Positions 39,006-58,059 of a DNA stretch of 64,000 nt are shown here, piece by piece. The stretch is taken from NCBI RefSeq assembly GCF_947495325.1, contig NZ_CANLYK010000001.1:1612001-1676000 (forward strand). The letters run 5' to 3'. Source of the stretch: an uncultured Allomuricauda sp. (GTDB taxonomy: Bacteria; Bacteroidota; Bacteroidia; Flavobacteriales; Flavobacteriaceae). The notes under the pieces were generated by a model, which did no database searches, was not told the DNA's origin, and saw only the letters and a list, made by a program, of their open reading frames with translations. How positions within the stretch are numbered: position 1 is the stretch's first letter; every line of letters starts with the position of its first letter. Made by a program: the position numbers and the translations under genes.

Positions 39006-39402
39006 GGGGCCGACCGGTTTTGACAGCGAGACCAATGGCGATGTAAGCATGCCGAGCGCTGGGATACAGCTCGTTAATCTCATTTTCCACACTTTTAATT
39101 GGCGATAATAATTACGCTCTTGCCGCTTAATCTGAATTATAGTAGGATTTAGCCTCGTCCTTACTAGGTAGGGAAGCGAGATGTTCCTGGGTAGCCCTTG
39201 TTGATGGCGACCCATTTAGGAGCACCAGAAAAGTCAACATAAGGGTGTTGTTCGCTTTGACGACACCACTAAAACTTTAAGAAGCTAAGTGTACGATAGG
39301 CGGTCTTTGGTCGGTCGTGCATCGAAAACCAAACAAAGTCTAAGCATGTAGAAAGCATTGATGTTGCTTGTTTGGACGAGGGTTCGAATCCCTCCGGCTC
39401 CA
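39006..39402 (+). ncRNA. ssrA: Transfer-messenger RNA (tmRNA)
   Basis: The 5' end GGGGCCGACCGGTTTTGACA and the 3' end GGGTTCGAATCCCTCCGGCTCCA form the tRNA-like domain. The acceptor stem GGGGCCG/CGGCTCC pairs with one G-U, the T-arm GAGGG-TTCGAAT-CCCTC is perfect, and the discriminator is A; the CCA tail is not encoded. The tag frame lies at 39101-39130. With SmpB it rescues stalled ribosomes. A strong terminator follows. Confidence 0.97.
39101..39130 (+). other. tmRNA proteolysis-tag reading frame (GDNNYALAA)
   Basis: GGC GAT AAT AAT TAC GCT CTT GCC GCT TAA, giving G-D-N-N-Y-A-L-A-A and stop. The ending YALAA is the usual ClpXP-recognised degron and the GxNNYALAA form is typical of Bacteroidota. 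Confidence 0.93.
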
Positions 39403-39425
39403 CTTTTTAGGTATCAAAACAAACC

Positions 39426-39699: not shown

Positions 39700-39789
39700 T
39701 CTATACATTCTTTCTTCTTTATATATAGAAAAGTTAATTTTCTATACAAAAGGCTCTATCTTTGTATAATAAAATAAAAAATCTATACA
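39700..39789 (+). repeat. Three TCTATACA direct repeats with 41-base period in the fic promoter
   Basis: TCTATACA at 39700, 39741 and 39782, each start exactly 41 bases from the last. The middle copy is part of two inverted repeats: TATAGAAAA-N5-TTTTCTATA (39724-39746) and TATACAAA-N10-TTTGTATA (39743-39768). They surround a TATCTTTG -7 box, so they look like operator sites. Confidence 0.65.
39757..39764 (+). promoter_or_regulatory. -7 box TATCTTTG of the fic gene
   Basis: Exact TAnnTTTG match, lying within the right-hand inverted repeat. It covers the TTG that could otherwise be taken as the fic start codon, which favours the GTG at 39792. Confidence 0.6.
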
Positions 39790-39791
39790 TA

Positions 39792-41949: not shown

Positions 41950-44900
41950 ATGAAATTGAAAAAAATATTGATTTTTATCACGGTAGCCTTGGTATTATTT
42001 TTCATCAAATACCAATTGCTACAAGAAGGTCTTTTTTCCATTCTGCTATGGATACTTACTATCCTATTAATTGGATTCCTGAAAAAAAAATATTTCAATC
42101 AACGTAGAAAAAGTGATTTAGATGACTTAATCCTATCCGATGTAAAAAAAGAATTTCTACGTGATTCCCTGCGGAGCCAAGCGATTGCTCGAAGTAAAGA
42201 TACCCTTAGGGTTTCTGGCAACAATAATCTAGAATACATTGAAACCCTCAATTGGCGCCTACATGCAGATAGTGGATTATTTGAAACATACAATGGCCCT
42301 CTTTATGAATTATTATCAAAAGTAAAATCCGAGCAAAAAAACAATTTCATAATTTTTGGTGAATCTGGTGTTGGCAAAACGTTTGCTGTTTTTGACTATA
42401 TAAAAAAGCGTATTGAAGCAGATTCAAATTTCACACCTATACTTATCTCATTATCGGACTGGAATGGACAAAAATCACTTGACCAATGGACAAGAAACAA
42501 GGCATCCAAAATATATCATCTGGATAAAGGGAGGTTGGAAATAGGATTGAAAAGAGGTCTTATATTTCCAATATATGACGGATTGGACCGGGTTAAAGAT
42601 GAAAATATCCTTTCGTTGTTTGAAAAATTGATGGCATTTGCAGCTAAAACTTCGATGGCAGTAGTAATGAAAACGGAAACCTACGAAAGATTAAGCATTG
42701 AATACACTCAAATGGATAAGTTTTGGAAGCTACCCTATAATTTGATTGAACTAAAGGCTTTAAAACCAAAACAAGTTGAAACCGTATTAAAAAACAATGG
42801 GGATTCCCACAAATTAGAAATCTTTCGCTCAAATCCAAAGTTCAAATTTCTTTGCCGATATCCTCTTTTCTTGAACTTACTTATTGGAATGGAATCTAAA
42901 TTCATCAAAGATAATTTGGGAGAGGAGCAACTTTCGCATGAACAATTTTTTAACCAAATATGGAGATGGTATGAACTAAAAATGCTCAATAGTTCAAGCT
43001 TTCTATCAGATTCAAAAAAAGAGAATTTAAAAATTTGGCTACGAAAAATGGCGCTAAATTCTGGTTTGTTCTTCCCAGAAGAACTGCAACCCTCCTATCT
43101 TGAATTTAAATGGTCCGTAGTCACGTATTATCTTGGTTCCAGATTATTGGGTACATCATTGGTGTCGATAGCGGCAGGTTTATTTCTTGCAGGACCCTTT
43201 GACTTTTGGGATGCCGCTGTTATTGGAGGTATAATCATTACATCTATTGACCTTATAAAATTATATTTTAAAGCATCTTATAATATTGAAGAATCGCTTT
43301 TTAAAATCAACGACCATAAATTAATCCCCCCCGGTATCAATATTTTGAAAAGAACTATACCATTAATATCAATATTGGGAATTTATTATGGCTTTACAAC
43401 ACCCAGATCATATAAATATGGCGGCGAAATGCTATTAAATGGCATGTTTTCCTCTACAGAAGCACTGGTGGGAATCATAGTTGGACTCTTACTTTCCATT
43501 TTTTTTGGCACTCGAAGTACTTGGCAGCAAAATCATTTTGACATAAGACCTATAGAACGAATAATTGGAAGCCTTAAAAATTATTTTATTTCTGGATTTG
43601 CAGGTGGCCTTCTGTTAGGGATTATAGTAGTTCCCATTTTTTACATTTTTAATTTTTTCACCAATGATGTCTCTTCTGTCAACGCATGGCTTAATCAAGA
43701 GCTGTATTTACAGGACAAATATTTGTTTGCAGGTTTTACGGGCTTTTTTTTGGGTTACCTATTTTTTGGCCTCTTTGGCTTTTTGCAGGGGAACAAGGTA
43801 ACCTTGGAGCGGACCGAAAAACTGGAGTTCATAAAACGTACCCCCATCACAAAATCTTTTATGAATGCCCTTAAATCAGCACTTGTATCCAGCTTGGTCA
43901 CTGGTGCTCTGTTAGGTAGTTATATTGGTTTGACAGAAATGGAGATAACAGCGGTTTTCAAGGCTTTGAAAACCGCCTTGGGTTTCGGTATTCTAGCATT
44001 TGCCTGGTTTGGGGGCCTAGACGCAATGTGCCATTGGTTACTAAGGTTTGTCTTATCACTTGAGGATAGTTTTCCATTGCACATTCGCTCATTTTTGCTT
44101 CATCTTTCTGAAATTGGTTTTATTAGACCTGTAGGTTCAGGTTATGAATTTATTCATCCCTCACTACGGGATTATTACAAAAGCGCACCTATCCAAAAAA
44201 AAACAAAAAAACCTACGTACCTAATTCCAATCAGCATAGTTTTATTATTATCGGCCCCAGTGTCGCTAAAATTATTTAAGAGATTTCAAAACGAATCCCA
44301 TTGGCAAAATGAATATGGCTTTAATGTGACCTTCAATAGCAATTTTGTACAGCATCATAAAGGGTCAAAAAACACATTCATAATTAACGGTATAGAAAAT
44401 GAAACCGAAAAGGTAATTCGGATAAATGCAAATGGGAAAGTGAAATTAGGGTCTTTTGTAGGGTTTGTATCCCCTACTGGTACAAAATCCGGTTTTTTAG
44501 GAATGAATTTGGGTGATACTTGGAACAAACCCGGCATGGAAAAACTCAACCATGGGGCACTTGCATTTCGAAAAAACAAAGGAAACTGGATTAGCTTTCC
44601 AGAAAATGATTTAATTCGTTATGGGCGAAATGAATCTTATTTAACCTTTACCGTAAAAAATGGAGATGTATTGGAAACCCACGTAAACGATAAAGAATGG
44701 CAAAATAATTCAGGCCAGTTTAATATTACTTTTGAAAACACTAGCAAAATGAGGAACCTACCTAAAATTGTGGCACATCGTGGCGGGGCAGCACTCTCCA
44801 CGGAAAATTCGATGGATGCAATAAAAAAATCGCTGCGATTGGGCGTTGATATTGTAGAAATAGATGTGAGGATGTCAAAAGATGGACATTTGGTACTTAT

Positions 44901-45459
44901 GCACGATAAAAGTGTTAATAGGACCACAGATGGGAAAGGATCGGTCAACAATTTAAATTTGGAAGAGATACAAAAATTGAGTTTGAACAATAGCTCCCAA
45001 AAAGAAGGCATTCCAACCTTAAATGAGGTTTTCTCTTTAATTTCAGGGCATAACACACAATTGTTAATTGAGGTAAAAACAGGTAAAAACTATAGTGATA
45101 CACTCGAAAAGCTGGCCCATACCATTAAAGAAAAAAATATGGAAAAACAGGTACTGGTTTTCTCGTTCAATAAAGCTTTTTGCGAAGAGCTAAAAAAACG
45201 TTTTCCAGAATTGACTGTTGGGGTGTTTCTCCTAAAACCTTCTTCAATTATGAAACTTCCAAATGTGGATGCGATTGGCGTAGAATACCACAGTCTTTTA
45301 TTATTTGGGTCCTGGTTAAAAAAATTGAAAGAAAAATATAATTCGGTCTATGCTTGGAATGTTAATTCCAGAAGTTCCATGCAGCGTCTGATGGATGAAA
45401 AAATCGACGGTATTATTACCGATGACCCAAAAAAGCTTCAAACATTATTAAACCAATAA
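41950..45459 (+). CDS. NACHT-type STAND NTPase fused to membrane bundle, LecA-like lectin domain and GDPD phosphodiesterase
   Basis: A 1,169-residue multidomain protein (ATG preceded by GGGGAGGGC; a GTG nine codons upstream is possible). Order: two N-terminal membrane helices (~4-42). NACHT/STAND NTPase with Walker A 'GESGVGKT' (~137-144) and Walker B 'IYDGLDRV' (~208-215). About eight hydrophobic helices (~395-705). 'YEFIHPSLRDYY' (~732-743), typical of the end of membrane NACHT proteins. One more helix (~755-774). A beta domain (~785-925) resembling PA-IL/LecA galactose lectins, with 'GALAFRKNKGNWISFPEND' and 'NNSGQFNITF'. Then a complete GDPD domain (~938-1169) with His943 in 'AHRGG', 'VEIDVRMSKDGHLVLMHD' (His985) and 'EVKTG'. 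By topology the lectin and GDPD parts are probably outside the cytoplasm. Likely senses a signal and acts on phosphodiester lipids or polymers; defence is a possible role. Confidence 0.8.
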   Translation: MKLKKILIFITVALVLFFIKYQLLQEGLFSILLWILTILLIGFLKKKYFNQRRKSDLDDLILSDVKKEFLRDSLRSQAIARSKDTLRVSGNNNLEYIETLNWRLHADSGLFETYNGPLYELLSKVKSEQKNNFIIFGESGVGKTFAVFDYIKKRIEADSNFTPILISLSDWNGQKSLDQWTRNKASKIYHLDKGRLEIGLKRGLIFPIYDGLDRVKDENILSLFEKLMAFAAKTSMAVVMKTETYERLSIEYTQMDKFWKLPYNLIELKALKPKQVETVLKNNGDSHKLEIFRSNPKFKFLCRYPLFLNLLIGMESKFIKDNLGEEQLSHEQFFNQIWRWYELKMLNSSSFLSDSKKENLKIWLRKMALNSGLFFPEELQPSYLEFKWSVVTYYLGSRLLGTSLVSIAAGLFLAGPFDFWDAAVIGGIIITSIDLIKLYFKASYNIEESLFKINDHKLIPPGINILKRTIPLISILGIYYGFTTPRSYKYGGEMLLNGMFSSTEALVGIIVGLLLSIFFGTRSTWQQNHFDIRPIERIIGSLKNYFISGFAGGLLLGIIVVPIFYIFNFFTNDVSSVNAWLNQELYLQDKYLFAGFTGFFLGYLFFGLFGFLQGNKVTLERTEKLEFIKRTPITKSFMNALKSALVSSLVTGALLGSYIGLTEMEITAVFKALKTALGFGILAFAWFGGLDAMCHWLLRFVLSLEDSFPLHIRSFLLHLSEIGFIRPVGSGYEFIHPSLRDYYKSAPIQKKTKKPTYLIPISIVLLLSAPVSLKLFKRFQNESHWQNEYGFNVTFNSNFVQHHKGSKNTFIINGIENETEKVIRINANGKVKLGSFVGFVSPTGTKSGFLGMNLGDTWNKPGMEKLNHGALAFRKNKGNWISFPENDLIRYGRNESYLTFTVKNGDVLETHVNDKEWQNNSGQFNITFENTSKMRNLPKIVAHRGGAALSTENSMDAIKKSLRLGVDIVEIDVRMSKDGHLVLMHDKSVNRTTDGKGSVNNLNLEEIQKLSLNNSSQKEGIPTLNEVFSLISGHNTQLLIEVKTGKNYSDTLEKLAHTIKEKNMEKQVLVFSFNKAFCEELKKRFPELTVGVFLLKPSSIMKLPNVDAIGVEYHSLLLFGSWLKKLKEKYNSVYAWNVNSRSSMQRLMDEKIDGIITDDPKKLQTLLNQ

Positions 45460-45464
45460 ATCGT

Positions 45465-46235
45465 TTAATTTCCAAACTCGGAAATAGCCTCCAACATTGA
45501 TTCATCTATCTCTCCTCCGTCCGAAATACCCATTTGATAGTCGTGTATGGCAGTGAACAAATCTTCCTCAAAAAGCAATTCATCATCCTTAGGTAAGAGC
45601 AAAAGACTGAACAATCCAAAACGGCGGTACAATTTCCGCGATGCTATTATTTTATCTTCCAAACGCTTTAATCGTTTTTGAACTATTATTTCAAATAAAG
45701 GTTCCAACTCTTCATTTTTCCATTCTTCAAAAAGTAATTTTAACTGCTCTTTGGCCCTTGGTCCTAAAACTTTTTTAAAATCTTCCAAGCTAAAATCTTC
45801 CAAAACGTCAATAACATCGTCCCTTCTGTCCTCCATTTCGGATATCACTTTTGATGCCTTATTCTGTTTTTTTCCAAAAAGAATATCAATCCATTGCTGT
45901 TCGGGCTTGTTTTGTTCGTAATGTATTTCTATTTCTTTTTTGTATGCTATTGTATAATCCAAAAAAGAAAGTTTAGAATTTCCTTCCAAAAAAGCAGTCA
46001 ATACATCCAAAGTTTTCTTTTGCGGGCGACCAGGTTTTTTTCCTTCCCATCCACTAATCAATTTTTCTCGGAGTTCAAAAGCTCTATCAATGGATCTTGG
46101 AACTACCATTTCATGGGTTTTGCTCTCTCTATCCGCAATTTCCTTAAAGTCCAAATCATATTCTTCTTCCTTGATTGTATCAATCAAGTAAATAAAACTA
46201 GGCAAGTGCACTTCAGTAAGTCTGGTGAATCCCAT
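45465..46235 (-). CDS. Protein of unknown function
   Basis: A 256-residue soluble, highly charged, mostly helical protein. An AT-hook-like 'KKPGRPQKK' occurs near residues 86-94, and acidic helices follow. It has no signal peptide or membrane segment. Its 3' end is 5 bases from the NACHT-GDPD gene (convergent). Its promoter region, shared with a divergent small lipoprotein gene, holds a pentamer tandem repeat. No family recognised. Confidence 0.7.
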   Translation of the reverse strand: MGFTRLTEVHLPSFIYLIDTIKEEEYDLDFKEIADRESKTHEMVVPRSIDRAFELREKLISGWEGKKPGRPQKKTLDVLTAFLEGNSKLSFLDYTIAYKKEIEIHYEQNKPEQQWIDILFGKKQNKASKVISEMEDRRDDVIDVLEDFSLEDFKKVLGPRAKEQLKLLFEEWKNEELEPLFEIIVQKRLKRLEDKIIASRKLYRRFGLFSLLLLPKDDELLFEEDLFTAIHDYQMGISDGGEIDESMLEAISEFGN

Positions 46236-46550: not shown

Positions 46551-46574
46551 TATACTTTGCCAAAAAAAACAATA

Positions 46575-48503
46575 ATGCCGTCTAAAAACCTCCTATTTAC
46601 TCTTACGGTATTGATATTGGCAAGTTTTTGTGCTTGTCAAAACAAATCTTCAAAATTTGAGAAGACTCCAGAATATTCAGTATATAAAACTCAATATCAT
46701 TCTATTGACAGTATAAAGGACCAAGATGAGCTATCAAAAGTCATCATCTCTTTAGAAGGGAGTAAAATAGATTCGATTTTGTTAAAAGCTATTTGGAAAA
46801 AATCCGATTTATTCAGTGATCAAAACAGTTCAGATTCGGTCCTGAAATATGATAGATTATTGCTTAAAAAGGCAATGAACCTAAATAATCTTTTTTACAC
46901 GGCAATGGGAGAATCTTATCTAGCTTATGACTTTAGGGAACTGCAGCAATTCGATAGTGCTTTCTATTATTATCAGAAAGCTAAGAATAGTTATTTAAAA
47001 CTTTCGGATAGCACCCAGGCAGGAAAAAAACTTTTAGAAATGGGTAAGATACAGTACCGACAAAATGATTTTTATGGTTCTAAAGAATCCTTAACCGAAG
47101 CATTGCAGTTCCTCAGTGAAAAAAAGGATAGAGAGTACGTCATCTGGTGTTGGAACGAACTTGGAAACAATTATTCCAGTCTCAAAGATTTCAAAAATGC
47201 AGAAGAAAATTATAAAAGGGCAATAAAAGAAGAAAACAACAAATCTGACAAATTACTATATATCAATAATTTAGCTGTTCTATATTCAAAGAATAAGGAA
47301 TATTCCAAAGCAATCGAACTTTTGAGAAAGGCAATTGATTCAATACCAAATAATTTTAGTAAAAGTGAATATGCAAGGTTACTTCACAATAAGGCTGAAA
47401 ACGAATGGAGATTAAACTCTTCAGACGTTCTTGATACTTATTTGAATGTATTAAAAATTAGAAAGCAACATCATGATAAACGTGGATTACTTTCTAGTTA
47501 TGCCAGTTTGGCGGAATTCTATGAATCTTCAAACTTGGACTTAACGAAAAAATATATCGATACCTTGATAATTTTATCGAGAAAATTAAAAATACCCCGG
47601 GCGGAAACCGAGGCTCTACAGCTTTTAATGAGAATAGAACCTAATGAAATCAGCCATTTGGTTAGATATATTTCCCTAAAAGACAGTATGTATCTTCAAG
47701 AGTTGAAAGTCAAGAATCAATTTGCATTTTTAAAATACCAAGATCAAGAGGAAAAATCCCGTTTATTGACACTTGAGGCGGCAAACGCAAAGCAAGAAGC
47801 CCAATTGGCCCAGGAAGAGACCCAAAAAATACTTTTCCTTTCAACAAGTGCCCTATTGGTAATGGGGGGCATTTCCTTGTTTTTTCTATTGAAGCAAAGA
47901 CACAAAAAAGAAAAATTACAAGAGGTCTATAATACTGAAAAGCGCATAAGTCAACGCTTGCACGATGGTCTAGCCAACGATATTTTTAGTCTAATGACTA
48001 AAGTTGAAAATATAGAACAAATTGAAAACGACACGTTTTTAGATGGTCTTGAAACTATTTATGCCAGAACACGTGAAATTTCACATGAAAATAGTAATGT
48101 TAATACTGGAGAGCTTTTTTCAGGGGAATTAAAGAGTCTTATAAAAACCTTTCATAGCAATACTATCAATATAGTTACAAAAGGTTTGGAAGATATTGAA
48201 TGGGCAAGTTTAAATGAGCAAAAATGTGTGGTCCTACATAGAACGCTAAAGGAGCTTTTGGTCAATATGAAAAAACACAGCAAAGCCAGTTTGGTAGGGT
48301 TACACTTTTCATCAAATAATAAAATAATAAAAATTGACTATAAAGATAATGGTGTCGGTTTCCCAACAGATATAAAATACGGACTTGGATTACGAAATGT
48401 GGTTTCCCGTATTCGAAGTTGTGGCGGTACTTTTAATTTTACCCAGAAATCAGGAACAGGTGTTTCAATTGAGATTTCCCTTCCTAACAAATCTGGCATA
48501 TAA
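46575..48503 (+). CDS. TPR-containing sensor histidine kinase
   Basis: A 642-residue membrane kinase. An N-terminal signal/lipoprotein-like segment (...LASFCAC) precedes a periplasmic TPR array (residues ~35-400). A membrane helix 'LSTSALLVMGGISLFFLLK' lies near 420-440, then a cytoplasmic HisKA_3-like dimerisation helix with phospho-acceptor His463 in 'RLHDGLAND', and a HATPase with 'KDNGVGFP' and 'GLGLRNVVSRI'. This tetratricopeptide-kinase type is frequent in Flavobacteriia. Start set at MPSKNLLF. Its stop codon touches the response-regulator ATG, so the two are coupled. Confidence 0.9.
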   Translation: MPSKNLLFTLTVLILASFCACQNKSSKFEKTPEYSVYKTQYHSIDSIKDQDELSKVIISLEGSKIDSILLKAIWKKSDLFSDQNSSDSVLKYDRLLLKKAMNLNNLFYTAMGESYLAYDFRELQQFDSAFYYYQKAKNSYLKLSDSTQAGKKLLEMGKIQYRQNDFYGSKESLTEALQFLSEKKDREYVIWCWNELGNNYSSLKDFKNAEENYKRAIKEENNKSDKLLYINNLAVLYSKNKEYSKAIELLRKAIDSIPNNFSKSEYARLLHNKAENEWRLNSSDVLDTYLNVLKIRKQHHDKRGLLSSYASLAEFYESSNLDLTKKYIDTLIILSRKLKIPRAETEALQLLMRIEPNEISHLVRYISLKDSMYLQELKVKNQFAFLKYQDQEEKSRLLTLEAANAKQEAQLAQEETQKILFLSTSALLVMGGISLFFLLKQRHKKEKLQEVYNTEKRISQRLHDGLANDIFSLMTKVENIEQIENDTFLDGLETIYARTREISHENSNVNTGELFSGELKSLIKTFHSNTINIVTKGLEDIEWASLNEQKCVVLHRTLKELLVNMKKHSKASLVGLHFSSNNKIIKIDYKDNGVGFPTDIKYGLGLRNVVSRIRSCGGTFNFTQKSGTGVSIEISLPNKSGI

Positions 48504-49172
48504 ATGTTCAAAAAGGTTTTAGTTGTTGAAGATTTGGACAGCATAGGCTATGGTATAGCCGTCATGCTAAAACAAGAACTGGATGTAGGCGAAGTTGTAC
48601 TTTCCCAGTATTGCGGCGATGCCTATCTCAAATTTATGAAATCAGTTAAAGAGCAAAATACTTTTGATCTGCTTATTACTGATTTGTCGTTCAATGAAGA
48701 TTATAGAGAGGACAAAATTGGAAACGGAAAACAACTGATAAAAAAAATAAGGGCTTTGGGTTACGATATCCCTATTATTGTCTGCTCCGTGGAAGAAAAG
48801 TCAGCCGCTGTAAAAAAACTGTTTCAAGACCAGACAATCTCTGGTTATGTAGTAAAAGGAAGAAACGGGTTAAAAAATTTAATGCATGCAGTTCAATCGG
48901 TCCACACTGGGAACACTTATCTGTCTCCCCAGCTGTCCAATGCCATAAAACAAAAAGAGGTCTTCGAGGTGGAAGATTATGATGTAAGACTATTGTCCCA
49001 TTTGTCAAATGGACTCACCCAAGATGAAATAGCAAGATATTTTCACCAAAAAGGCATATCACCAAGTAGTCTAAGCTCCATCGAAAAAAGATTAAATCGA
49101 TTAAAAGATGAGCTTAGGGCCAAGAACACCATTCAGTTAGTGGCCAATGCCAAGGATTTAGGATTAATCTGA
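48504..49172 (+). CDS. Response regulator with LuxR/NarL-like C-terminal HTH
   Basis: A 222-residue response regulator. The receiver domain 'KVLVVEDLDSIGYGIAVML' has phospho-acceptor Asp60 in 'LLITDLSF' and conserved Lys near 118 in 'YVVKG'. The C-terminal HTH, 'DVRLLSHLSNGLTQDEIARYF', is NarL-like, but the second helix region ('GISPSSLSSIEKRLNRLKDEL') differs from the standard LuxR signature. It begins immediately after the kinase stop. Likely activator of the CCGTAAGG promoters downstream. Confidence 0.9.
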   Translation: MFKKVLVVEDLDSIGYGIAVMLKQELDVGEVVLSQYCGDAYLKFMKSVKEQNTFDLLITDLSFNEDYREDKIGNGKQLIKKIRALGYDIPIIVCSVEEKSAAVKKLFQDQTISGYVVKGRNGLKNLMHAVQSVHTGNTYLSPQLSNAIKQKEVFEVEDYDVRLLSHLSNGLTQDEIARYFHQKGISPSSLSSIEKRLNRLKDELRAKNTIQLVANAKDLGLI

Positions 49173-49372: not shown

Positions 49373-50191
49373 GTGAAAATTCATAAAAACACATTCCAGA
49401 TTCTCTTCTTTATTGTGCTTTGGTCAATCCAATCACGCTCACAGTCAGAGCAACCTTATGGCACTCAAGCCCAACTAGGTTCAAATAACAATATTGTTGA
49501 TTGCGGACACTTATTGGACGGGCCTTCTTATTATATAAAACAATTAGAGAACAAATCTTTGGACAATATGTTCTCCCTAACCCAAGAACAGAAACAACAA
49601 ATCGGTAAATCCAATTACAAAGAGATTCTAAAAAAACATAAGCTACTCAATGAATTTCCAAATAAGTCAAGTGTTCTCCAAACTTTTGCGAATGTCAAAA
49701 AGGTGGCCAATAGCACTACAGCATTCAAGCTACATATAATAGACTCTAAAGATATCAATGCATTTACCATGATTGGTGGGCATATATACCTTACAACAGG
49801 CTTACTTTCCTATGTAGATTCGATGGATGAACTTGCCTTTATCTTAGGCCATGAAATAGGGCATCATGAAAAACTTCACTTAGAAAGAAAAGTTAAAAAA
49901 ATAATGGCAACATCAACTTTTTTTGGTGCAACCGGTGTTGAGGAATTTACAAGAATAGCCATTGATCTAAACAACAAATTTTCCGCTCCTTTTGATCAAA
50001 TAAATGAGTATGAAGCAGATGAATACGGCTTTGAACTTGCTAAAGAAACTGGATATGATGTAAACAGATTTGCTGATTTTTTCAAAAAACTGGAAAAGAA
50101 CGAGAAAAGGTCAATACTCGCAAAGCTTAACTCTACCCATCCTTTTTCAAGCGATAGAAGGAAATGCGTAGAAAATTATATTGCCAATTAG
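49373..50191 (+). CDS. M48-family metalloprotease
   Basis: A 272-residue secreted zinc protease with a GTG start and a signal peptide ('ILFFIVLWSIQSRS'). The zinc site 'HEIGHHE' lies at residues 160-166, with the third ligand in 'NEYEADEYGFELA', and 'GGHIYLTTGLLSYVDSMDELAFILG' is typical of the BepA/YfgC-like M48 group. It probably degrades misfolded envelope proteins or processes a product of this operon. First gene of the nine-gene unit; the ABC gene starts 7 bases later. Confidence 0.92.
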   Translation: MKIHKNTFQILFFIVLWSIQSRSQSEQPYGTQAQLGSNNNIVDCGHLLDGPSYYIKQLENKSLDNMFSLTQEQKQQIGKSNYKEILKKHKLLNEFPNKSSVLQTFANVKKVANSTTAFKLHIIDSKDINAFTMIGGHIYLTTGLLSYVDSMDELAFILGHEIGHHEKLHLERKVKKIMATSTFFGATGVEEFTRIAIDLNNKFSAPFDQINEYEADEYGFELAKETGYDVNRFADFFKKLEKNEKRSILAKLNSTHPFSSDRRKCVENYIAN

Positions 50192-50198
50192 AACCAAT

Positions 50199-51959
50199 AT
50201 GAAAGAAAAGGATTTATCCATTCAAGCGATTGGGATAACTAAAAAATATCCAAAAAATAAGATTGGGCTACAACCAATGTCGTTGGAAATAAAACCCAAA
50301 AGTTTTGTTGCCTTGATGGGACCTTCTGGTTGTGGAAAATCCACTCTGCTCAAATGTTTGAATGGCGATAATCCTGCAACTTCTGGAGAGGTATATATTA
50401 ACGGTCTGTCACTAATAGATAATTACGACCAGATCAAAAAAAGTATAGGCTATGTTCCTCAAGATGATATTATCCATAGGGAGCTAAGTGTTTACAAAAC
50501 GCTTTTTTATGCCGCTAAACTTCGATTACCAGATGGCACTTCAAAAGAGGAAATTGAAAAGCGTATCAATAAAGTCTTGAAAAGCTTAAAACTAAATCAA
50601 CACGATCAAGGTAATCAAGAAGGGCAAAAGGACATTAAACACAAAAAGGTAAAAGAATTATCGGGTGGCCAAAGAAAGAGAATTTCAATTGCTGTTGAGT
50701 TATTGACAGAACCCTCCATCCTGTTTTTAGACGAACCTACTTCTCCCTTGGATCCCGAGACCATTGATAGTTTTCTTAAAAGTTTAAGGGATTTAGCAAA
50801 AGAAGGTACTTCCATTGTTATGGTAACCCACAAACCTGAAGATCTTAATTATGTTGATGAAGTGGTTTTTTTAGGTGTAAAGGGGCACTTGGTCTATAAA
50901 GGGCTTCCTCATAAAATCACAGAACATTTCAATGCGGACAGCATTATTGAAGTGTATAGCAAAATGAGTGATTTAGATGAGGTTGTAAAAAGTTACCTCC
51001 CGCCCAAAGAAGGTTCACGTTCTACGGACATGAGTCAAAAATGGAACAAAAGCAGGCCTGACTCCAGTTTTCAACAGCTGTATTGGCTAGCAAAAAGATA
51101 TTTGAATATAAAGCTTAACGATTATAGTAATCTTGTATTGCTGTTACTGCAGCCAATAATCATTGGTGGGCTGGTAAGTCTTGTTTTCAGCGAATTTCGA
51201 ATTGGAGTCATTTTTTTGACCGCCATTTCGGCCATTTGGTTTGGTGTCAGCAATTCAGCCAAGGAAATTGTTAGTGAACTACCAATTTATAAGAGGGAAC
51301 GAATGTTCAATTTGAACATCAACACATATATTATTTCAAAGTTGCTTATACTTTCCCTGATTGCTTTGATACAAGTAGTTGTATTCGTTGCGATTATTTA
51401 TTTGAATTTTAAGATCAATGCAATTGCGGAGTTTCCTGAAACCTATTTAAGACCATTTTGGGAAAGCGTTGGTTTCCTTTTTATGATTTCTTGTTCAGCT
51501 ACCTTAATTGGTTTGTTTCTGTCATCTTATTTCAGCACTACCGAAAAAGTCATGACCGTAGTACCTATTACGCTGATGCCACAGATAATGTTGGCAGGTG
51601 TAATGACAAAATTAGATACCCGCTTTATTGAAATTTTAAGTTTTTTCACTTTGGGCAGATGGGGCACTGAAGGATTCGCACGATTACAGGATACCTATTT
51701 TGAGAACAATTCTATTGAAACTGAAAGTGTTCTCACTCCTGAATTCAATCCAGATGGTTATCACAAAAACGATTGCAAATGTGAAGCTGCAAGTGCCTTG
51801 GACCAACTTGGGCTTTATGATGACAGCCTTATTGACAAAGGCATACTAATCGGGAAAGCCTTTAACAATATAACCGCCAACACATTGGCAATATTGATGC
51901 TAAGTTTTATCATGTATCTACTGATTTTTATTTCACTAAGTAAAAAAGATAGTATATGA
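50199..51959 (+). CDS. ABC transporter, fused ATPase and ABC2 membrane domain (ABCG-like)
   Basis: A 586-residue half-transporter with the ATPase first and the membrane domain second, as in ABCG proteins. Walker A 'GPSGCGKST', signature 'LSGGQRKRISIA', Walker B 'ILFLDEPTSPLD', H-loop 'VTHK'. The membrane part (~290-586) has six helices with 'GVSNSAKEIVSELPIYKRER', a typical ABC2/ABCG coupling motif. Start placed at MKEKDLS, 7 bases after the protease; an 11-base overlap start is less likely. Exports an unknown substrate. Confidence 0.92.
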   Translation: MKEKDLSIQAIGITKKYPKNKIGLQPMSLEIKPKSFVALMGPSGCGKSTLLKCLNGDNPATSGEVYINGLSLIDNYDQIKKSIGYVPQDDIIHRELSVYKTLFYAAKLRLPDGTSKEEIEKRINKVLKSLKLNQHDQGNQEGQKDIKHKKVKELSGGQRKRISIAVELLTEPSILFLDEPTSPLDPETIDSFLKSLRDLAKEGTSIVMVTHKPEDLNYVDEVVFLGVKGHLVYKGLPHKITEHFNADSIIEVYSKMSDLDEVVKSYLPPKEGSRSTDMSQKWNKSRPDSSFQQLYWLAKRYLNIKLNDYSNLVLLLLQPIIIGGLVSLVFSEFRIGVIFLTAISAIWFGVSNSAKEIVSELPIYKRERMFNLNINTYIISKLLILSLIALIQVVVFVAIIYLNFKINAIAEFPETYLRPFWESVGFLFMISCSATLIGLFLSSYFSTTEKVMTVVPITLMPQIMLAGVMTKLDTRFIEILSFFTLGRWGTEGFARLQDTYFENNSIETESVLTPEFNPDGYHKNDCKCEAASALDQLGLYDDSLIDKGILIGKAFNNITANTLAILMLSFIMYLLIFISLSKKDSI

Positions 51960-52948
51960 AAAATTCTGTCTACTACATTTTCACTTATGTTCTTTTTTTC
52001 CATTCCTGTGGTGTTGCTGAGCCAATTTTCATTTCCAATAGCAACCTACAATTTAAGGAAGTAAATGATTCTGATTTCCTTTTCACCATTGATGCCAATA
52101 TTTACAATCCAACCGGGTTCAAATATCAGTTGAAAGAACTTTACTTTGATATTAAATATGATGCGGAAAAAGTTGGGAGTGGAAAATTAACTGTTCCCCA
52201 ACATATAAATGCTAAGGATACTACAGCACTTCCTTTTCATTGTAACCTTAATCTTTCGCAGCTACAGAAAAAACATAAACAAATTTTATCTCAAGAAACC
52301 TCCAATTTCCTTTTTACCGGAGAGGCATTTGCAGTACACCCATTAAAAAAAATAAGAAAGGGGTTAGAAATAAAAATTCCATACGATGCCAAAAGTTTCA
52401 TCACAGATAATATACTGAGGCAAGATTTGGTATTGAACCAAATGGAAATTGAAAAAATCAATCCTTTCACTTGGAGCAACCCTATTAAATCAAGTTTTCG
52501 GCTTACAATTCAGATCCATAACGAACAACCCTTCGATTTTAAAATTAAGCAGGTTCAACTCTCGCTAAAGTCCAAACAAACAGATAAGGTTGTTTTAAAC
52601 GGTGTGCTGGATACCATTATCGATGCCCCAAGCCATGGAACAATCAAAGTTCCTCTTAACATTGAATCGAACAATTTGAGTCTACTACAGAACCTCGGCA
52701 GCTTTTTCTTAGGCAAAGACAACACTAAATATATCGGTTCCGGATTCGTGGTCATAGACATAGAAGGTTTTGATTTCCAAATTCCATTTATCAAAGAATT
52801 TAATCCCGTAATGAACTCTTTTGGAAACAAAGAGGTAAGCCCAATCAGTGATAGCGGCAAATATGGACTTTGTCATTTAATGAATAAGTCATTGAACCCA
52901 TACAGACAGGTACATAACTATATCATTAAACCAACCAACAAATTCTAA
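51956..52948 (+). CDS. LEA14-like (WHy) lipoprotein
   Basis: A 330-residue lipoprotein (Cys18 in 'LFFHSC') overlapping the ABC gene by 4 bases (ATGA). The mature part has two LEA type 2/WHy-like beta domains: 'FLFTIDANIYNPTGFKYQLKELYFDIKYDAEKVGSG' and 'FRLTIQIHNEQPFDFKIKQVQLSLKS'. Such domains bind or shield other proteins at the envelope. Role in this operon unknown. Confidence 0.8.
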   Translation: MKNSVYYIFTYVLFFHSCGVAEPIFISNSNLQFKEVNDSDFLFTIDANIYNPTGFKYQLKELYFDIKYDAEKVGSGKLTVPQHINAKDTTALPFHCNLNLSQLQKKHKQILSQETSNFLFTGEAFAVHPLKKIRKGLEIKIPYDAKSFITDNILRQDLVLNQMEIEKINPFTWSNPIKSSFRLTIQIHNEQPFDFKIKQVQLSLKSKQTDKVVLNGVLDTIIDAPSHGTIKVPLNIESNNLSLLQNLGSFFLGKDNTKYIGSGFVVIDIEGFDFQIPFIKEFNPVMNSFGNKEVSPISDSGKYGLCHLMNKSLNPYRQVHNYIIKPTNKF

Positions 52949-52949
52949 A

Positions 52950-53885
52950 ATGAAATCCAAAAGAAAAAGAAAAAAAAGATTACCTATTCTCATTTTATCA
53001 AGTGCTATGCTGGTGTTGATCGGGGGTTACTTTTATTTTTCTATTACCAATAGCGTGGAAGCGCTTGCTCTAGCACGAGAAGGTGAAAATTGGGGCTTTA
53101 TTGATAAAGATGGTGAGGAAATCATCCCCTTTAAATATGAAATGGCCTGGAAAATGTCGGAAGGTTTGGCTTTGGTAAAAAAATATGGAAAGTGGGGGTT
53201 CATAGATAAAAATGACAATGTCAAGATACCAATGATTTACGAGGACGCCCAACCATTCTCTGACAGTTTAGCAGCAGCAAAATTAAATGGAAAATGGGGC
53301 TTTATTGACCACAACGCAAATATGGTCATCGACGCAGCATATGAGGAAGCCATATCATTTTCAGAAGATTTGGCTCCTGTGAAAAAAGGAAACAAATGGG
53401 GTTTCATAAACAAAATAGGAGAAGAAATTATCCCCTTTAAATATTCCAGCGCCTATCTCTTCTCCGAAAAATTAGCTCCCGTAGGTATCAAAGGGCTTGA
53501 AGGTTTTATCAATAAAGATAATGTGATGGTCATTCCTCCACATTTTGATTTTGTATTGTCATTTGCAGAAGGACTGGCACCAGTGAACAAAGATGGAAAA
53601 TGGGGTTTTATTGCAAAAAACGGCAAAACCATTGTTGAACCCAAGTACGAACAAACATGGGGTTTTTCTGAAGATCTGGCTCCCGTTAAAATTGATGGGA
53701 AATGGGGTTTTATCAATAGAAAAGGTGAAGAGGTAATCGAGCCAATATACGAAGATGCATTTGTTTTTTTGAACGGTCTGGCTCCCGTAAAAGTAAATGG
53801 GCAACAAGGGTTTATCAATAAAGAGCAAGAAATCATCATAAAATTCAAATACGATTATGTCGATGCATTTTATGATATCGACTAA
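52950..53885 (+). CDS. Membrane-anchored WG-repeat protein
   Basis: A 311-residue protein starting one base after the previous stop. A basic N terminus (KSKRKRKKR) and one membrane helix (~11-31) are followed by eight WG repeats of about 34 residues with the core 'WGFID..G..IIP.KYE.A..FSE.LAPVK..GK'. These beta repeats form a rod or propeller outside the inner membrane. Binding partner unknown. Confidence 0.93.
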   Translation: MKSKRKRKKRLPILILSSAMLVLIGGYFYFSITNSVEALALAREGENWGFIDKDGEEIIPFKYEMAWKMSEGLALVKKYGKWGFIDKNDNVKIPMIYEDAQPFSDSLAAAKLNGKWGFIDHNANMVIDAAYEEAISFSEDLAPVKKGNKWGFINKIGEEIIPFKYSSAYLFSEKLAPVGIKGLEGFINKDNVMVIPPHFDFVLSFAEGLAPVNKDGKWGFIAKNGKTIVEPKYEQTWGFSEDLAPVKIDGKWGFINRKGEEVIEPIYEDAFVFLNGLAPVKVNGQQGFINKEQEIIIKFKYDYVDAFYDID

Positions 53886-54783: not shown

Positions 54784-55236
54784 ATGAAAAAAACGATGAT
54801 ATTATTAGTTATTCTTTTAGCTGCATGCGGAGGTAACAAACACGCCAATTTTGATTCTGCCCAAGTAAACTATGTTACCAACGATAGATTAGAGTCTATT
54901 ACGGTAAGTAGTTCAGATATTGGAGAAAATGAGGAAGAAGCCATTTTTAACGCAAAGAAATTGGCTTTTCAAAATTTGTTTTTTAGGGGAATCTCAAATT
55001 CTCCATTCAATAAGCCACTAATTGGCATCAATGAACAAACAGAATACAAAAAACATAAAGACTATCTAAATTCTTTTTATACCAACCGAATGGGAACCTT
55101 CATCACAAGCTCCCATGAATCTGTTTCGAAAGTTAAGGGAGGCGGAAGACTGGCCAGAATCGATATCACCATTAATACGTTGGCTTTGCAAAAAGATTTA
55201 GAAGAACATCAAGTGATTAAAAAATTTGGATTATGA
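54784..55236 (+). CDS. Lipoprotein with LPP20-like motif
   Basis: A 150-residue lipoprotein: 'MILLVILLAACGG', Cys near 15. The core 'ENEEEAIFNAKKLAFQNLFFRGI' matches the alternating A..nA...A pattern of LPP20-like lipoproteins. It begins one base after the CsgG-like gene and overlaps the next by 4 bases. Such proteins are often found beside CsgG-like genes in Bacteroidota, which supports a shared complex. Confidence 0.8.
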   Translation: MKKTMILLVILLAACGGNKHANFDSAQVNYVTNDRLESITVSSSDIGENEEEAIFNAKKLAFQNLFFRGISNSPFNKPLIGINEQTEYKKHKDYLNSFYTNRMGTFITSSHESVSKVKGGGRLARIDITINTLALQKDLEEHQVIKKFGL

Positions 55237-56156
55237 AGATTAAAAAATTAGTGCAACAATTTTTGTTGGTTAGCGTATTATACATTGCAAACACTGTATA
55301 CGTACAAGCTCAAAAAGACTGCGAAGAAGTAAATACCCTTCAACCCAGTATAATGGTCTTACCCCGCACCATAAAGGGAGAAGACTTAAGGACCATAATG
55401 GATAAGCAACCGGAAGTACGGGTAGCCATTTCAAAGGTAAAGCAAGCCTTTGATGACAGGGGATACACTACGATGGATTTTGAAACGACCCTAAAATCCA
55501 GAATCAGGGATGAAGTAGTAACAAAAGAATCCCAAACAGAATTTAAAAACAGAATTTTCAGAAACATTCCTTCGGATATCATTGTAGAGATAGATGTTAT
55601 TATAAGTTATTCCGATAAGGGCAATAGGGCCACTCTAGTTTTGGAAGCCAACGTAACTGACAATGGTAACTCAATGGCCAGTGTACCACTTGAAGGAAAC
55701 ATGTATTATACAGAGGATAAAATACTACTGATTGGATCCGCATTGAAAAAAGAAAATGACAACAATGAGTTGTTATTAGATGAATTTTTAAGGAAAATGA
55801 ATGAAAAATGGGCAGAAATGCGGGAAAATGGTAAGTCGGTCAAAATGGAATTCAGCCTTTCAGAAGATGTGGTCATTACCATGGATGAGGATGTACCTTC
55901 CAAACGTGAAAAATTAAAATATGTGATTGAAGATTGGTTGGAAGAAACTGCTTATAAAAATTACTATGTAGTGACTTTTGTGACCGAGACCAAACTTATG
56001 GTCGAGGATTACAGATACCCTGTTCGCGATCCTAAAAACTGTTCCAATATGACAGCTAGAAAAATTGAACGAAAACTAGATCGTTTTTTTGACAAAATAG
56101 ATTTGCCCGTGAAATTTGATAATAGCAGGGGAACCATTTACATCACCATCTTATAA
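55233..56156 (+). CDS. Secreted protein, probable DUF6175 family
   Basis: A 307-residue protein with signal peptide ('VSVLYIANTVYVQAQ'). Early segment 'QPSIMVLPRTIKGEDLRTIMD' and 'VRVAISKVKQAFDDRGYTTMDFETTLK' recall DUF6175, found next to CsgG/LPP20-like genes in Bacteroidota; I cannot verify it without a profile search. ATGA overlap with the preceding lipoprotein. Confidence 0.72.
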   Translation: MKIKKLVQQFLLVSVLYIANTVYVQAQKDCEEVNTLQPSIMVLPRTIKGEDLRTIMDKQPEVRVAISKVKQAFDDRGYTTMDFETTLKSRIRDEVVTKESQTEFKNRIFRNIPSDIIVEIDVIISYSDKGNRATLVLEANVTDNGNSMASVPLEGNMYYTEDKILLIGSALKKENDNNELLLDEFLRKMNEKWAEMRENGKSVKMEFSLSEDVVITMDEDVPSKREKLKYVIEDWLEETAYKNYYVVTFVTETKLMVEDYRYPVRDPKNCSNMTARKIERKLDRFFDKIDLPVKFDNSRGTIYITIL

Positions 56157-56166
56157 ACTAACAATT

Positions 56167-57183
56167 ATGAAAAATAAAATATTTTTGACTGCACTTTTTC
56201 TTTTAAGTTGTATTTGTGGGGTTCAAGCCCAAATTGATGGTGAATCCGAAGACGATTTGAGCATATCTGCAGTTGTTCCTCTTCAAATGGAAGGGTTGAC
56301 AGCCGGGCAGATTTCAAAACTTGAATCCAGAATGCTCAGAATGGTGAGCAATTATGGTATAGCCGGGGAAGGTTACACTGATAAATTCATTATGTACCCA
56401 AAATACGAAATATACGACCACAAAGTTGTGGAAGGGATGCAAAATGTACATGTCATTGATGTGGAACTGAATCTTATAATTAAAGAAGTAAAGACGGGAA
56501 AAGTTTATAGTGTATTCAGTCAAGAAATTACTGGTGATGGGTACTCTAAAAAAGAAGCTGTAGACCAAAGTATCTCACAAATAAAAACAAGAGGAGAGAA
56601 CATCAAAAGCTTTTTACAGAGTGCAAAGACCAAAATTTTGGAATATTACCGTTCAAATTGCGATAGGTTGTATGACGAAGCCGACACCATGGTAAATCAA
56701 AAAAGATATAATGAGGCCATTGCTTTATTATACCCAGTGCCCAAAGAAGTTGGCGGTGAATGTTACAAAAAAATTCAAAGAAAACTGGATGAAGCCTATA
56801 ACGGGTATTTAAATAAAACCTGTGAAAAGAACTTGGTAAGGGCCAAGGCAGAAATATCTAAAAACAACAATGAAACCGCTCTTGAAATTTTAGGTTCAAT
56901 TGAGACTGAATCCAATTGCCATTCTTCTGCCCAGCAGCTCAAGGCCAAAATACAGGTGAAAACCAAACAAAATGAGGAAACTTCCAGTACCGATAACACT
57001 AATACGGAATCGGTTGAAAATGAAAAAGTTGATGACAATGACAAAACTTCAAGTACACCTTTAGTTAAAGAGAAGGAATCACGTCAAGTAAAAAAGAGAA
57101 GGAAAATGAGGGAAATTGCCAAATCTGAATTCACCCGCACAAGACATCAAGGTGAAGTGGACAGAGCAATACAGGAGGGTTAA
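56167..57183 (+). CDS. Secreted LpoB/TPR-like protein of unknown function
   Basis: A 338-residue protein with signal peptide ('ALFLLSCICGVQAQ'). The first half resembles a CsgG/LpoB-like envelope domain ('MYPKYEIYDHKVVEGMQNVHVIDVELNL', 'TGKVYSVFSQEITGDGYSKKEA'). The second half has two TPR-like helical pairs ('ADTMVNQKRYNEAIALLYPVPKE', 'NNNETALEILGSIE') and a charged tail with an Arg/Lys cluster. Start set at MKNKIFLTA, 10 bases after the previous stop. Confidence 0.72.
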   Translation: MKNKIFLTALFLLSCICGVQAQIDGESEDDLSISAVVPLQMEGLTAGQISKLESRMLRMVSNYGIAGEGYTDKFIMYPKYEIYDHKVVEGMQNVHVIDVELNLIIKEVKTGKVYSVFSQEITGDGYSKKEAVDQSISQIKTRGENIKSFLQSAKTKILEYYRSNCDRLYDEADTMVNQKRYNEAIALLYPVPKEVGGECYKKIQRKLDEAYNGYLNKTCEKNLVRAKAEISKNNNETALEILGSIETESNCHSSAQQLKAKIQVKTKQNEETSSTDNTNTESVENEKVDDNDKTSSTPLVKEKESRQVKKRRKMREIAKSEFTRTRHQGEVDRAIQEG

Positions 57184-57231: not shown

Positions 57232-58059
57232 ATGATAAAAACAGCCAACATTAGTATACTTCTCATTTTGCTGATGACACCTTCATTAGTTTTGAGCCAA
57301 CTTAAATATATTGGATTAGTACCATTTAAAACTACTGATATAAATCATTACGCAGAGGCAGAGGCCATAACTGAAAAGGTAAAGGAACTATTTGTCGAAA
57401 GAGATAGGTTTACCATTTTGGATAGAACAAAATATTCCCAAACTTCCATTTATAAGGAAATTGAAGTCCAAAAAAACATTGAGTACATTGAAGGTTTTGT
57501 AATTGAACAAGGAAAACAAAACGGGGCACAGGCCATTGTTGGTGGCAACCTAACATCTTTGACCTATGGAAAGGACAAAAGTGGACTATATGAGTGTTCA
57601 ATGACTTTTAGCATAACCATAAATGATATTGAAAGTGGGCATGTTATAGGTTCCAAAACCTTTAATACTCCTTCCTTTTGCTTAACCTGTGCCGGAGGCA
57701 CCAAGACGGAAACCTTGTTCTCCGTATTAAGGATCTTGCAAAAGAAAATAAGAGCTTTCATTCTTGAAACTTTCCCCTTTACAGTTAAAATTGAAGATGT
57801 ATTTGAGATAAAAAGTGGTGGTGAAATCATTATCATAGCGGGAGAGAAAGAAGGTATTACCAAAAAAGATAAGTTCAAGGTATATGAGATTATTAAAAGT
57901 GGGAGCCGAACAAGAAAAGCTGAAATTCTTGAATTTACAATAGATAGGGTTGAGGGAGATTTCTCTGTAGGTAAAATAAAAGGAAAACAGTTTGATCTTT
58001 TAATGGAAAAATTCAAAGATTCCAATGTAAAACTTGAATGTGTTACACTTTCAAAATAA
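57232..58059 (+). CDS. CsgG/LpoB-like secreted protein, copy 2
   Basis: A 275-residue paralogue of the protein at 53916: 'YIGLVPFKTTDINHYAEAEAITEKVKELFVERDRFTILDRTKYSQ', 'NGAQAIVGGNLTSL' and 'MTFSITINDIESGHVIGSKTF'. Signal peptide 'ILLILLMTPSLVLSQ'. 48 bases after the previous gene; last of the operon. Confidence 0.8.
   Translation: MIKTANISILLILLMTPSLVLSQLKYIGLVPFKTTDINHYAEAEAITEKVKELFVERDRFTILDRTKYSQTSIYKEIEVQKNIEYIEGFVIEQGKQNGAQAIVGGNLTSLTYGKDKSGLYECSMTFSITINDIESGHVIGSKTFNTPSFCLTCAGGTKTETLFSVLRILQKKIRAFILETFPFTVKIEDVFEIKSGGEIIIIAGEKEGITKKDKFKVYEIIKSGSRTRKAEILEFTIDRVEGDFSVGKIKGKQFDLLMEKFKDSNVKLECVTLSK

What the first reader, a model, noticed from the sequence alone, without database searches (positions are those of the whole stretch)
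41950..45459. NACHT NTPase joined to a membrane bundle, a LecA-like lectin and a GDPD enzyme
Seen: Walker A and B of a NACHT/STAND NTPase, many membrane helices, the FIHPSLRDYY ending of membrane NACHT proteins, a beta domain with PA-IL/LecA-like sequence and a full GDPD catalytic set, in one 1,169-residue chain. Membrane NACHT proteins and GDPDs are known families, and bacterial NACHT proteins take part in antiphage immunity; I know of no described protein with all four parts. By topology the lectin-GDPD end faces the periplasm, so a cytoplasmic signal could drive attack on membrane lipids, or a surface sugar could be sensed. Location downstream of ssrA with Fic fits an accessory or defence region.
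Basis: partly seen in the sequence, partly recalled or inferred. Interest (0 to 1): 0.82.

Follow-up and report, generated by a model that had tools for sequence, protein, structure and literature searches.

The report
NACHT-fold membrane switch with periplasmic enzyme
A flavobacterium carries, on a stretch of DNA that looks like a mobile island, an unusual membrane protein that joins the kind of switch found in animal immune receptors to a lectin-fold domain and a phosphodiester-cutting enzyme that appear to lie on the outer side of the inner membrane; what it does is not yet known.

Summary
One intact 1,169-residue gene (41950-45459) encodes a NACHT-fold NTPase, about 11 membrane helices, a divergent LecA-fold domain and a complete GDPD domain. 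It is no sequencing join: 5 of 71 same-genus genomes (window included) carry it full length, as do an uncultured Dokdonia (63%) and G183 (35%). Sequence profiles confirm only GDPD; NACHT rests on predicted fold (NOD2, Z 15.4) and on relatives that pass Pfam NACHT; the lectin rests on predicted fold alone (best six rows all LecA family, Z 8.7-6.2; next 5.3). Charge counts place lectin and GDPD in the periplasm. New here: the gene heads a co-inherited block of about 13 genes (two-component pair, M48, ABC, LEA_2, WG, CsgG/LpoB-like, DUF6175); in this genome it lies in a ~36-kb stretch between att-like repeats at ssrA; lectin and GDPD recur as adjacent, apparently exported genes in G1234; Walker B ends in Arg in this clade. 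I read it as a membrane STAND switch controlling a periplasmic lectin-GDPD arm in an envelope-directed conflict or stress cassette. An antiphage role is neither shown nor excluded. My paper searches listed no description of it.

The parts
41950..45459 (+). NACHT-fold, membrane, LecA-fold and GDPD protein, 1,169 aa
41968..42084 (+). N-terminal membrane hairpin TM1-TM2 (res 7-45)
42127..43092 (+). NACHT-fold NTPase region (res 60-381), placed in the cytoplasm
   Evidence: NOD2 5irm Z 15.4, 5.0 A over 291; NLRC4 4kxf Z 15.4, 5.8 A over 284; NLRP3 7vtp Z 15.0, 6.1 A over 283
42358..42381 (+). Walker A GESGVGKT (res 137-144)
   Evidence: Identical in 6 of 6 of the Flagellimonas/Dokdonia clade; GxxGxGKT in 8 of 8
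42571..42591 (+). Walker B region IYDGLDR (res 208-214); last acidic residue replaced by Arg
   Evidence: R in 6 of 6 of the clade; DGLDQ in G183 and DGLDE in Pedobacter; DGLDE in L040, L042, L043
43135..44022 (+). membrane bundle TM3-TM10 (res 396-691)
   Evidence: Hydropathy and predicted helices; pLDDT below 50 there
44023..44217 (+). segment with FIHPSLRDYY (res 692-756), placed in the cytoplasm
   Evidence: Profile match in NACHT-membrane proteins that end here; net positive in 8 of 8 sequences
44218..44277 (+). TM11 (res 757-776)
44299..44739 (+). LecA-fold domain (res 784-930)
   Evidence: H868, W880, N913, D914, N919, N920 invariant in 10 aligned domains
44755..45456 (+). GDPD domain (res 936-1169) with H943 R944, E970, D972, H985, E1041, K1043, W1136
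   Evidence: PF03009 1.1e-38; residues present in 6 of 6; 3no3 Z 18.4, 3.4 A over 208
45465..46235 (-). convergent gene, 256 aa, no family found
   Evidence: In all five same-genus loci and in Dokdonia (39% over 160); no Pfam or NCBIfam row
46557..48503 (+). TPR protein with a histidine-kinase-like end
   Evidence: TPR_12 49.5 bits over cut-off; HATPase_c 25.0 bits, just under cut-off 26.4; UhpB-like 3.8e-15; conserved
48504..49172 (+). response regulator-like protein, 222 aa (named by eye, no profile run)
   Evidence: 68-89% identity in the other five loci of the block
49373..50191 (+). M48 peptidase
   Evidence: PF01435 1.3e-26
50199..51959 (+). ABC transporter (ATPase plus ABC-2 membrane part)
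   Evidence: PF00005 2.8e-32, PF01061 8.2e-19; 87% or more identity only in the 5 NACHT-bearing of 71 genus genomes
51956..52948 (+). LEA_2-domain protein
   Evidence: PF03168 1e-9
52950..53885 (+). WG-repeat protein
   Evidence: PF14903
53916..54782 (+). CsgG-like protein
   Evidence: PF03783 7.1e-7
54784..55236 (+). conserved 150-aa protein
   Evidence: no Pfam row
55233..56156 (+). DUF6175 protein
   Evidence: PF19672 5.2e-44; close orthologue only in the 5 NACHT genomes of 70 searched
56116..57183 (+). conserved 355-aa protein
   Evidence: in the bin G026 only 128 residues lie in the stretch read
57232..58059 (+). LpoB/CsgG-like protein
   Evidence: PF13036 0.0072, under cut-off; 65-85% in three other loci; in G026 the stretch read ends before it
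39389..39404 (+). att-like repeat at the ssrA 3' end; second copy at window-scale 75442, beyond the window
   Evidence: 16 exact bases, 22 of 24 overall

Best explanation
A membrane-anchored NACHT-fold (STAND) switch that works across the inner membrane. The NTPase lies in the cytoplasm between an N-terminal membrane hairpin and an eight-helix bundle; the chain then crosses the membrane once more, so that a LecA-fold recognition domain and a GDPD hydrolase lie in the periplasm. A cytoplasmic cue, or a sugar bound outside, would drive nucleotide-dependent clustering of the NTPase, which rearranges the membrane bundle and brings together or unmasks lectin-GDPD arms that bind a surface glycan or glycolipid and cut a glycerophosphodiester in the envelope. 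It belongs to a co-inherited block with a two-component pair, an M48 peptidase, an ABC transporter and LEA_2, WG, CsgG/LpoB-like and DUF6175 proteins, so I read the whole as an envelope-directed conflict or stress system. Shown: architecture by homology or predicted fold, intact GDPD residues, purifying selection, co-inheritance, island-like repeats. Inferred: clustering, direction of signalling, substrate, sugar and biological role.
For: Fold matches for the three globular parts; GDPD profile and residues; K/R 310 in 1,715 inner-loop residues (0.181) against 67 in 736 outer-loop residues (0.091) over 8 sequences (segment limits set by me, long soluble parts counted by 30-residue flanks); GxxGxGKT and DGLD in 8 of 8; lectin and GDPD as adjacent genes with a 4-base overlap in G1234, both with export-like starts by eye; NACHT-membrane-lectin protein followed by a separate GDPD gene in Pedobacter; block in the five same-genus genomes and, as far as its stretch goes, in Dokdonia, with matching presence of the ABC orthologue (5 of 71) and close DUF6175 orthologue (5 of 70); att-like repeats; relatives of the LecA-like domain in a Runella plasmid protein beside annotated caspase genes, and beside two TIR-like genes in G1234.
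Against: No phenotype of any kind. No PADLOC hit. Walker B lacks its last acidic residue in this clade, so hydrolysis may be weak. The Pedobacter GDPD shows no signal peptide by eye, so there the enzyme may be cytoplasmic. G183 and Pedobacter lack the block in the stretches read. Of five non-fused lectin contexts looked at, three (G769, Runella, and the one Leptospira record read of three) show no GDPD next door. The G1234 TIR matches are under Pfam's cut-off (27.4 and 21.5 bits against 28), and no Pfam family, caspase included, hits the Runella lectin protein. The full-length model is poor (pLDDT 51.9, membrane part under 50). Lectin Z 8.7 is little above the 7-8 that the tool gives as typical for models without a clear match, and Foldseek gave no row under E 0.001. 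In one pair (G026/G051) the first 46 residues have dN/dS 0.55, the other parts 0.07-0.13.
Confidence: 0.42

Rival explanations
1. Antiphage abortive-infection protein: the NTPase senses a phage product inside the cell and the activated GDPD damages the cell's own membrane lipids, killing the infected cell.
For: NACHT fold close to NOD2, NLRC4 and NLRP3; bNACHT proteins defend against phage (passages of PMC12169576); presence in 5 of 71 genomes; an island-like stretch that also holds a SoFic-type Fic gene (PADLOC E 4e-120; under the NCBIfam SoFic cut-off, 375 of 550 bits); LecA-like relatives beside caspase and TIR-like genes; the ABC neighbour's ATPase part resembles PADLOC mad3 and mad8.
Against: No PADLOC hit for the protein; purifying selection; neighbours look like envelope and two-component genes; SoFic is not in the other loci; bNACHT proteins are described with the effector at the N-terminus, here the enzyme is C-terminal and outside; known GDPD substrates are mostly deacylated or lysolipids (recalled).
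Confidence: 0.25
2. Outside-in receptor for envelope homeostasis or nutrient use: the lectin binds a polysaccharide or glycolipid, GDPD processes it, and the NTPase reports to the cell beside its two-component pair; no conflict role.
For: Two-component-like pair, M48, ABC, LEA_2 and CsgG-like genes in all five genomes; related M48-ABC-LEA_2 clusters with kinase genes in other members of the genus (four loci read); purifying selection.
Against: The unit also occurs without the block (G183, Pedobacter); NACHT and STAND proteins are mostly conflict or cell-death switches (recalled).
Confidence: 0.25
3. The lectin fold is only a structural beta-sandwich spacer between membrane and enzyme and binds no sugar.
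For: No PA-IL profile hit; for the LecA domain of EclA, which holds calcium, no ligand was found (passages of PMC11875179); the Asp-to-Asn spacing of the putative calcium loop is two residues shorter than in EclA (D114, D121, N122); the Runella relative reads NN...NQ in that loop.
Against: H868, W880, N913, D914, N919 and N920 are invariant in 10 aligned domains down to 25% identity, more than a spacer needs; Runella and Leptospira were not in that alignment.
Confidence: 0.25

Closest known systems
Bacterial NACHT (bNACHT) antiphage proteins, e.g. bNACHT25 (passages of PMC12169576)
   Same: NACHT-module STAND NTPase
   Different: Described with N-terminal effectors such as nucleases, or none discernible; this one is membrane-embedded with a C-terminal LecA-fold domain and GDPD on the far side, has Arg at the end of Walker B, and is untested
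DGR-diversified NACHT-CLec proteins of Thiohalocapsa PB-PSB1 (passages of PMC10907252)
   Same: NACHT joined to a lectin-fold domain
   Different: C-type-lectin fold made variable by a retroelement; in one target both NACHT and CLec are predicted periplasmic, in the other cytoplasmic; no GDPD mentioned in the passages seen
Membrane NACHT proteins without lectin or GDPD (G445, G632, G762; loci L040, L042, L043)
   Same: NACHT, membrane region and a matching C-terminal segment
   Different: End after that segment; L043 carries an N-terminal Ser/Thr kinase
LecA/PA-IL family (LecA, PllA, EclA)
   Same: Predicted fold; ND...NN loop resembling the calcium site
   Different: Too divergent for PF07828; part of a membrane enzyme. 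EclA's authors call it the first LecA domain fused to another domain (passage of PMC11875179)
GDPD (PF03009) enzymes, e.g. 2pz0, 3no3, GlpQ 5t9b
   Same: Profile, catalytic residues and fold
   Different: Here joined to a NACHT-fold membrane protein

Membership tests
NACHT / STAND NTPase | Walker A GxxGxGK[ST] and DGxD of Walker B | tested here: met
   GxxGxGKT and DGLD in 8 of 8; the last acidic residue is R in 6 of 6 of this clade; motif roles recalled
NACHT / STAND NTPase | Pfam PF05729 above cut-off 26.7 (a detection threshold) | tested here: not met
   No PF05729 row for the window protein; 22.5 bits in G183, 14.8 in Pedobacter; 30.0-44.8 bits in L040, L042, L043, L056. Pfam membership is not claimed
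NACHT / STAND NTPase | NACHT fold | tested here: met
   Res 60-381: NOD2 Z 15.4, 5.0 A over 291; NLRC4 Z 15.4, 5.8 A over 284; this part of the model mostly pLDDT 60-85
bNACHT antiphage proteins | Protection against phage | not testable with these tools
   Needs an assay
Known defence systems (PADLOC 2.0) | Match to a defence model | tested here: not met
   0 families at E up to 1
LecA / PA-IL lectins | Pfam PF07828 match (a detection threshold) | tested here: not met
   No match at E up to 10 in the own genome, with no positive control among the 14; none. Pfam membership is not claimed
LecA / PA-IL lectins | LecA jelly-roll fold | tested here: met
   2vxj Z 8.7, 3.0 A over 101; 5odu Z 6.6, 3.2 A over 99; 6ygq Z 6.3, 3.9 A over 103; next unrelated 5.3; Foldseek best 2vxj E 0.021, prob 1.00. 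Moderate strength
LecA / PA-IL lectins | Calcium-site residues and sugar binding | tested here: inconclusive
   D914, N919, N920 resemble EclA D114, D121, N122 but the loop is two residues shorter; binding not testable here
GDPD (PF03009) | Profile and catalytic residues | tested here: met
   134.2 bits against cut-off 23.6; H943, R944, E970, D972, H985, E1041, K1043 in 6 of 6; catalytic roles recalled

The most novel reading that the evidence does not exclude
A STAND immune-type switch that signals inside-out: the NTPase lies in the cytoplasm while its effector, a glycan-targeted phosphodiesterase, lies on the far side of the membrane, and the whole is the trigger of a mobile envelope-attack block of about 13 genes in which a LecA-fold domain is an interchangeable targeting module, joined to GDPD in some members and to a caspase-like region in another.
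Probability: 0.3. Interest if true: 0.85.

Novelty: new variant of a known kind. Interest (0 to 1): 0.62.

Why it matters
The bacterial NACHT proteins described in the papers I saw act with cytoplasmic effectors. A NACHT-type switch wired through the membrane to a periplasmic hydrolase would show that STAND switches can act on the envelope from within, and offers a small testable case of transmembrane NLR-like signalling. It would also extend LecA-fold domains from secreted lectins to parts of membrane enzymes.

Tried and rejected
Sequencing join or frameshift: rejected. Finding NACHT or PA-IL by Pfam or PDB sequence search of the window protein: failed; replaced by predicted folds. Phage or plasmid origin of residues 1-930: no match in phages; two Acaryochloris plasmid places (one annotated NACHT) over residues 132-412; viral contigs gave none. 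Integrase: none noticed by eye among listed ORFs (shorter ORFs and families not examined). Shared integration site: no tRNA or tmRNA gene in the stretches of the other block loci. More lectin relatives: one search gave 1 of 88 and 1 of 161, each the genome already known; one search gave 3 of 395, one of them (G1057, E 6e-4, two stops inside) dropped. Runella and Leptospira came from a plasmid search with the G1234 lectin (4 records, 1 Runella, 3 Leptospira, of which one Leptospira was read). In one search one reference meant for a sigma-like gene fell inside the LEA_2 gene instead, so 'sigma-like' and 'FHA-like' in those clusters are by eye only.

Papers: searches for NACHT with GDPD or lectin terms, bNACHT (60), LecA domains (111) and DUF6175 (94, no paper) listed no description of this protein; several lists were capped (20 of 24, 20 of 686, 20 of 400, 10 of 15, 10 of 114,935), and only the open-licence library is covered. 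Beyond listings I saw passages of PMC7159879, PMC12169576, PMC11875179 and PMC10907252; no paper was read whole.

None required a change of odds.
Full report
What is there. The frame at 41950-45459 is one intact gene of 1,169 residues. Searching 148 relatives with the whole protein gave matches in 109; of the listed matches only five span residues 1-1169 (G000, G035, G015, G026, G051), the rest being GDPD matches. Searching with residues 1-930 gave 5 of 71 same-genus genomes. In a named genome collection the query found six loci: Flagellimonas aquimarina, Allomuricauda amphidinii, F. hadalis, a Bacteroidia bin, an uncultured Dokdonia (63%) and Pedobacter westerhofensis (25%). In a family sample 3 of 299 genomes matched: the own genome, G183 (full architecture, 35%) and G258 (68 residues only). 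In a phylum sample 11 of 395 matched: the own genome, G769 by the lectin alone, and nine by parts of the NACHT or C-terminal segment; in an order sample 2 of 296, the second (G1234) by the lectin alone. The architecture is real, rare and kept.

Domains. GDPD passes Pfam strongly. NACHT is too divergent for Pfam here, but relatives found by the family profile (L040, L042, L043) and an Acaryochloris plasmid protein pass PF05729, and the model of residues 60-381 matches NOD2 (Z 15.4, 5.0 A over 291), NLRC4 (15.4, 5.8 A over 284) and NLRP3 (15.0, 6.1 A over 283). The lectin part folded alone (pLDDT 78.7) has PA-IL/LecA, PllA and EclA as its six best structural rows (Z 8.7 to 6.2), then unrelated TNF-like folds at 5.3. 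This is moderate evidence: the tool gives 7-8 as a usual best Z for models without a clear match, and Foldseek's best E is 0.021. That the rows are one lectin family, and that H868, W880, N913, D914, N919 and N920 are invariant in ten aligned domains, supports it. In EclA calcium is held by D114, D121, N122 and two main-chain oxygens (passages of PMC11875179); the window loop is two residues shorter, and a Runella relative outside the alignment reads NN...NQ there, so calcium binding is open.

Topology. Hydropathy and predicted helices suggest eleven membrane segments. With the N-terminus inside, inner loops carry 0.181 K/R per residue and outer loops 0.091, over 8 sequences (limits set by me). 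This puts the lectin and GDPD in the periplasm. Support: in G1234 a lectin protein with a signal-like start is followed, with a 4-base overlap, by a GDPD that begins like a lipoprotein (by eye). Against: in Pedobacter the separate GDPD shows no signal peptide (by eye).

Altered switch. In the Flagellimonas/Dokdonia clade the motif reads DGLDR in 6 of 6, against DGLDQ in G183 and DGLDE in Pedobacter and three membrane NACHT relatives. A position that is Arg after the next strand in G183 and Pedobacter is Lys in the clade. That these positions serve catalysis is recalled; slow hydrolysis is an inference.

Neighbourhood. In the five same-genus genomes the gene is followed by the same block: a convergent 256-aa gene, TPR histidine-kinase-like protein, response regulator-like protein, M48, ABC, LEA_2, WG, CsgG-like, a 150-aa protein, DUF6175, a 355-aa protein and a LpoB/CsgG-like protein, 13 genes with the NACHT gene, to window 58059. 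In G026 the stretch read ends inside the 355-aa gene; Dokdonia shares the block to within LEA_2, where its stretch ends. The ABC orthologue at 87% or more occurs in exactly the 5 NACHT genomes of 71; twelve others have a 63-65% relative in a longer protein (17 of 71 matched). DUF6175 occurs in 6 of 70: the same 5 (70% or more) and G060 at 31%. As the genes are linked, these counts are not independent. Four of the longer ABC relatives, from three genomes, lie in M48-ABC-LEA_2 clusters with a kinase gene; Pfam confirmed kinase and PP2C in one. G1234 has lectin and GDPD with DUF6175 (E 1e-9) and LpoB-like (1e-7) relatives of the window genes (E-values for a small set), two TIR-like proteins under Pfam's cut-off, an ABC protein and a TssR-VWA protein. 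G183 and Pedobacter lack the block in the stretches read.

Island. The last bases of ssrA recur at window-scale position 75442: 16 exact bases, 22 of 24 overall. None of 60 Markov sequences reached 16 (best 13), but 1 of 300 real 50-mers did (best 18). G+C is 0.33-0.36 between the copies and 0.38-0.41 to the right; the left flank varies from 0.34 to 0.40. This fits a ~36-kb island at ssrA, with the NACHT gene about 2.5 kb inside its left end; no integrase was noticed. The SoFic-type Fic gene is in it but not in the other loci.

Mechanism and verdict. I favour a membrane STAND switch governing a periplasmic lectin-GDPD arm within an envelope-directed block (0.42). Defence by abortive infection (0.25) and plain envelope sensing (0.25) remain open. 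What it works like and what it is a member of are separate: it has the NACHT fold and P-loop, does not pass the Pfam NACHT, Pfam PA-IL or PADLOC models, and is a GDPD by the tests made. My paper searches, some with capped lists, showed no published protein with these four parts.

Noticed in passing
window 39389 and L085 about 11442 (window-scale 75442): Direct repeat of the ssrA 3' end (22 of 24 bases) bounding a ~36-kb lower-G+C stretch: a likely genomic island, no integrase noticed.
   Followed up: partly
window 39762-40871: Fic protein, PADLOC SoFic E 4e-120 (under the NCBIfam SoFic cut-off), in the island but absent from the other block loci.
   Followed up: partly
window 50199-51959: The ABC protein's ATPase part matches 28 PADLOC models, best mad3 1.2e-29; probably general ABC-ATPase similarity, not pursued.
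   Followed up: no
L065, L066, L067, L068: M48-ABC-LEA_2 clusters with a kinase gene (FHA-like and sigma-like by eye), related to the window block but with other regulators; kinase and PP2C confirmed in L065.
   Followed up: partly
L083:5029-6309: Runella plasmid protein with a caspase-like region (by eye; no Pfam row) and a C-terminal LecA-like domain, beside annotated caspase-family genes.
   Followed up: partly
L074:2338-10122: Two TIR-like proteins, LpoB/CsgG-like, DUF6175, apparently exported LecA-like protein and GDPD in one cluster.
   Followed up: partly
L043:508-3504: Ser/Thr kinase-NACHT-membrane protein ending in the same C-terminal segment.
   Followed up: no
L042:403-2409: NACHT protein whose membrane part is a long run of GL-rich repeats.
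   Followed up: no
window 45465-46235: Convergent gene right after the NACHT gene in the window, four same-genus loci and Dokdonia; no family found.
   Followed up: no
L085:3280-6793: Subtilase (S8) gene next to a gene that looks by eye like a metallo-beta-lactamase-fold protein, in the right part of the island.
   Followed up: no
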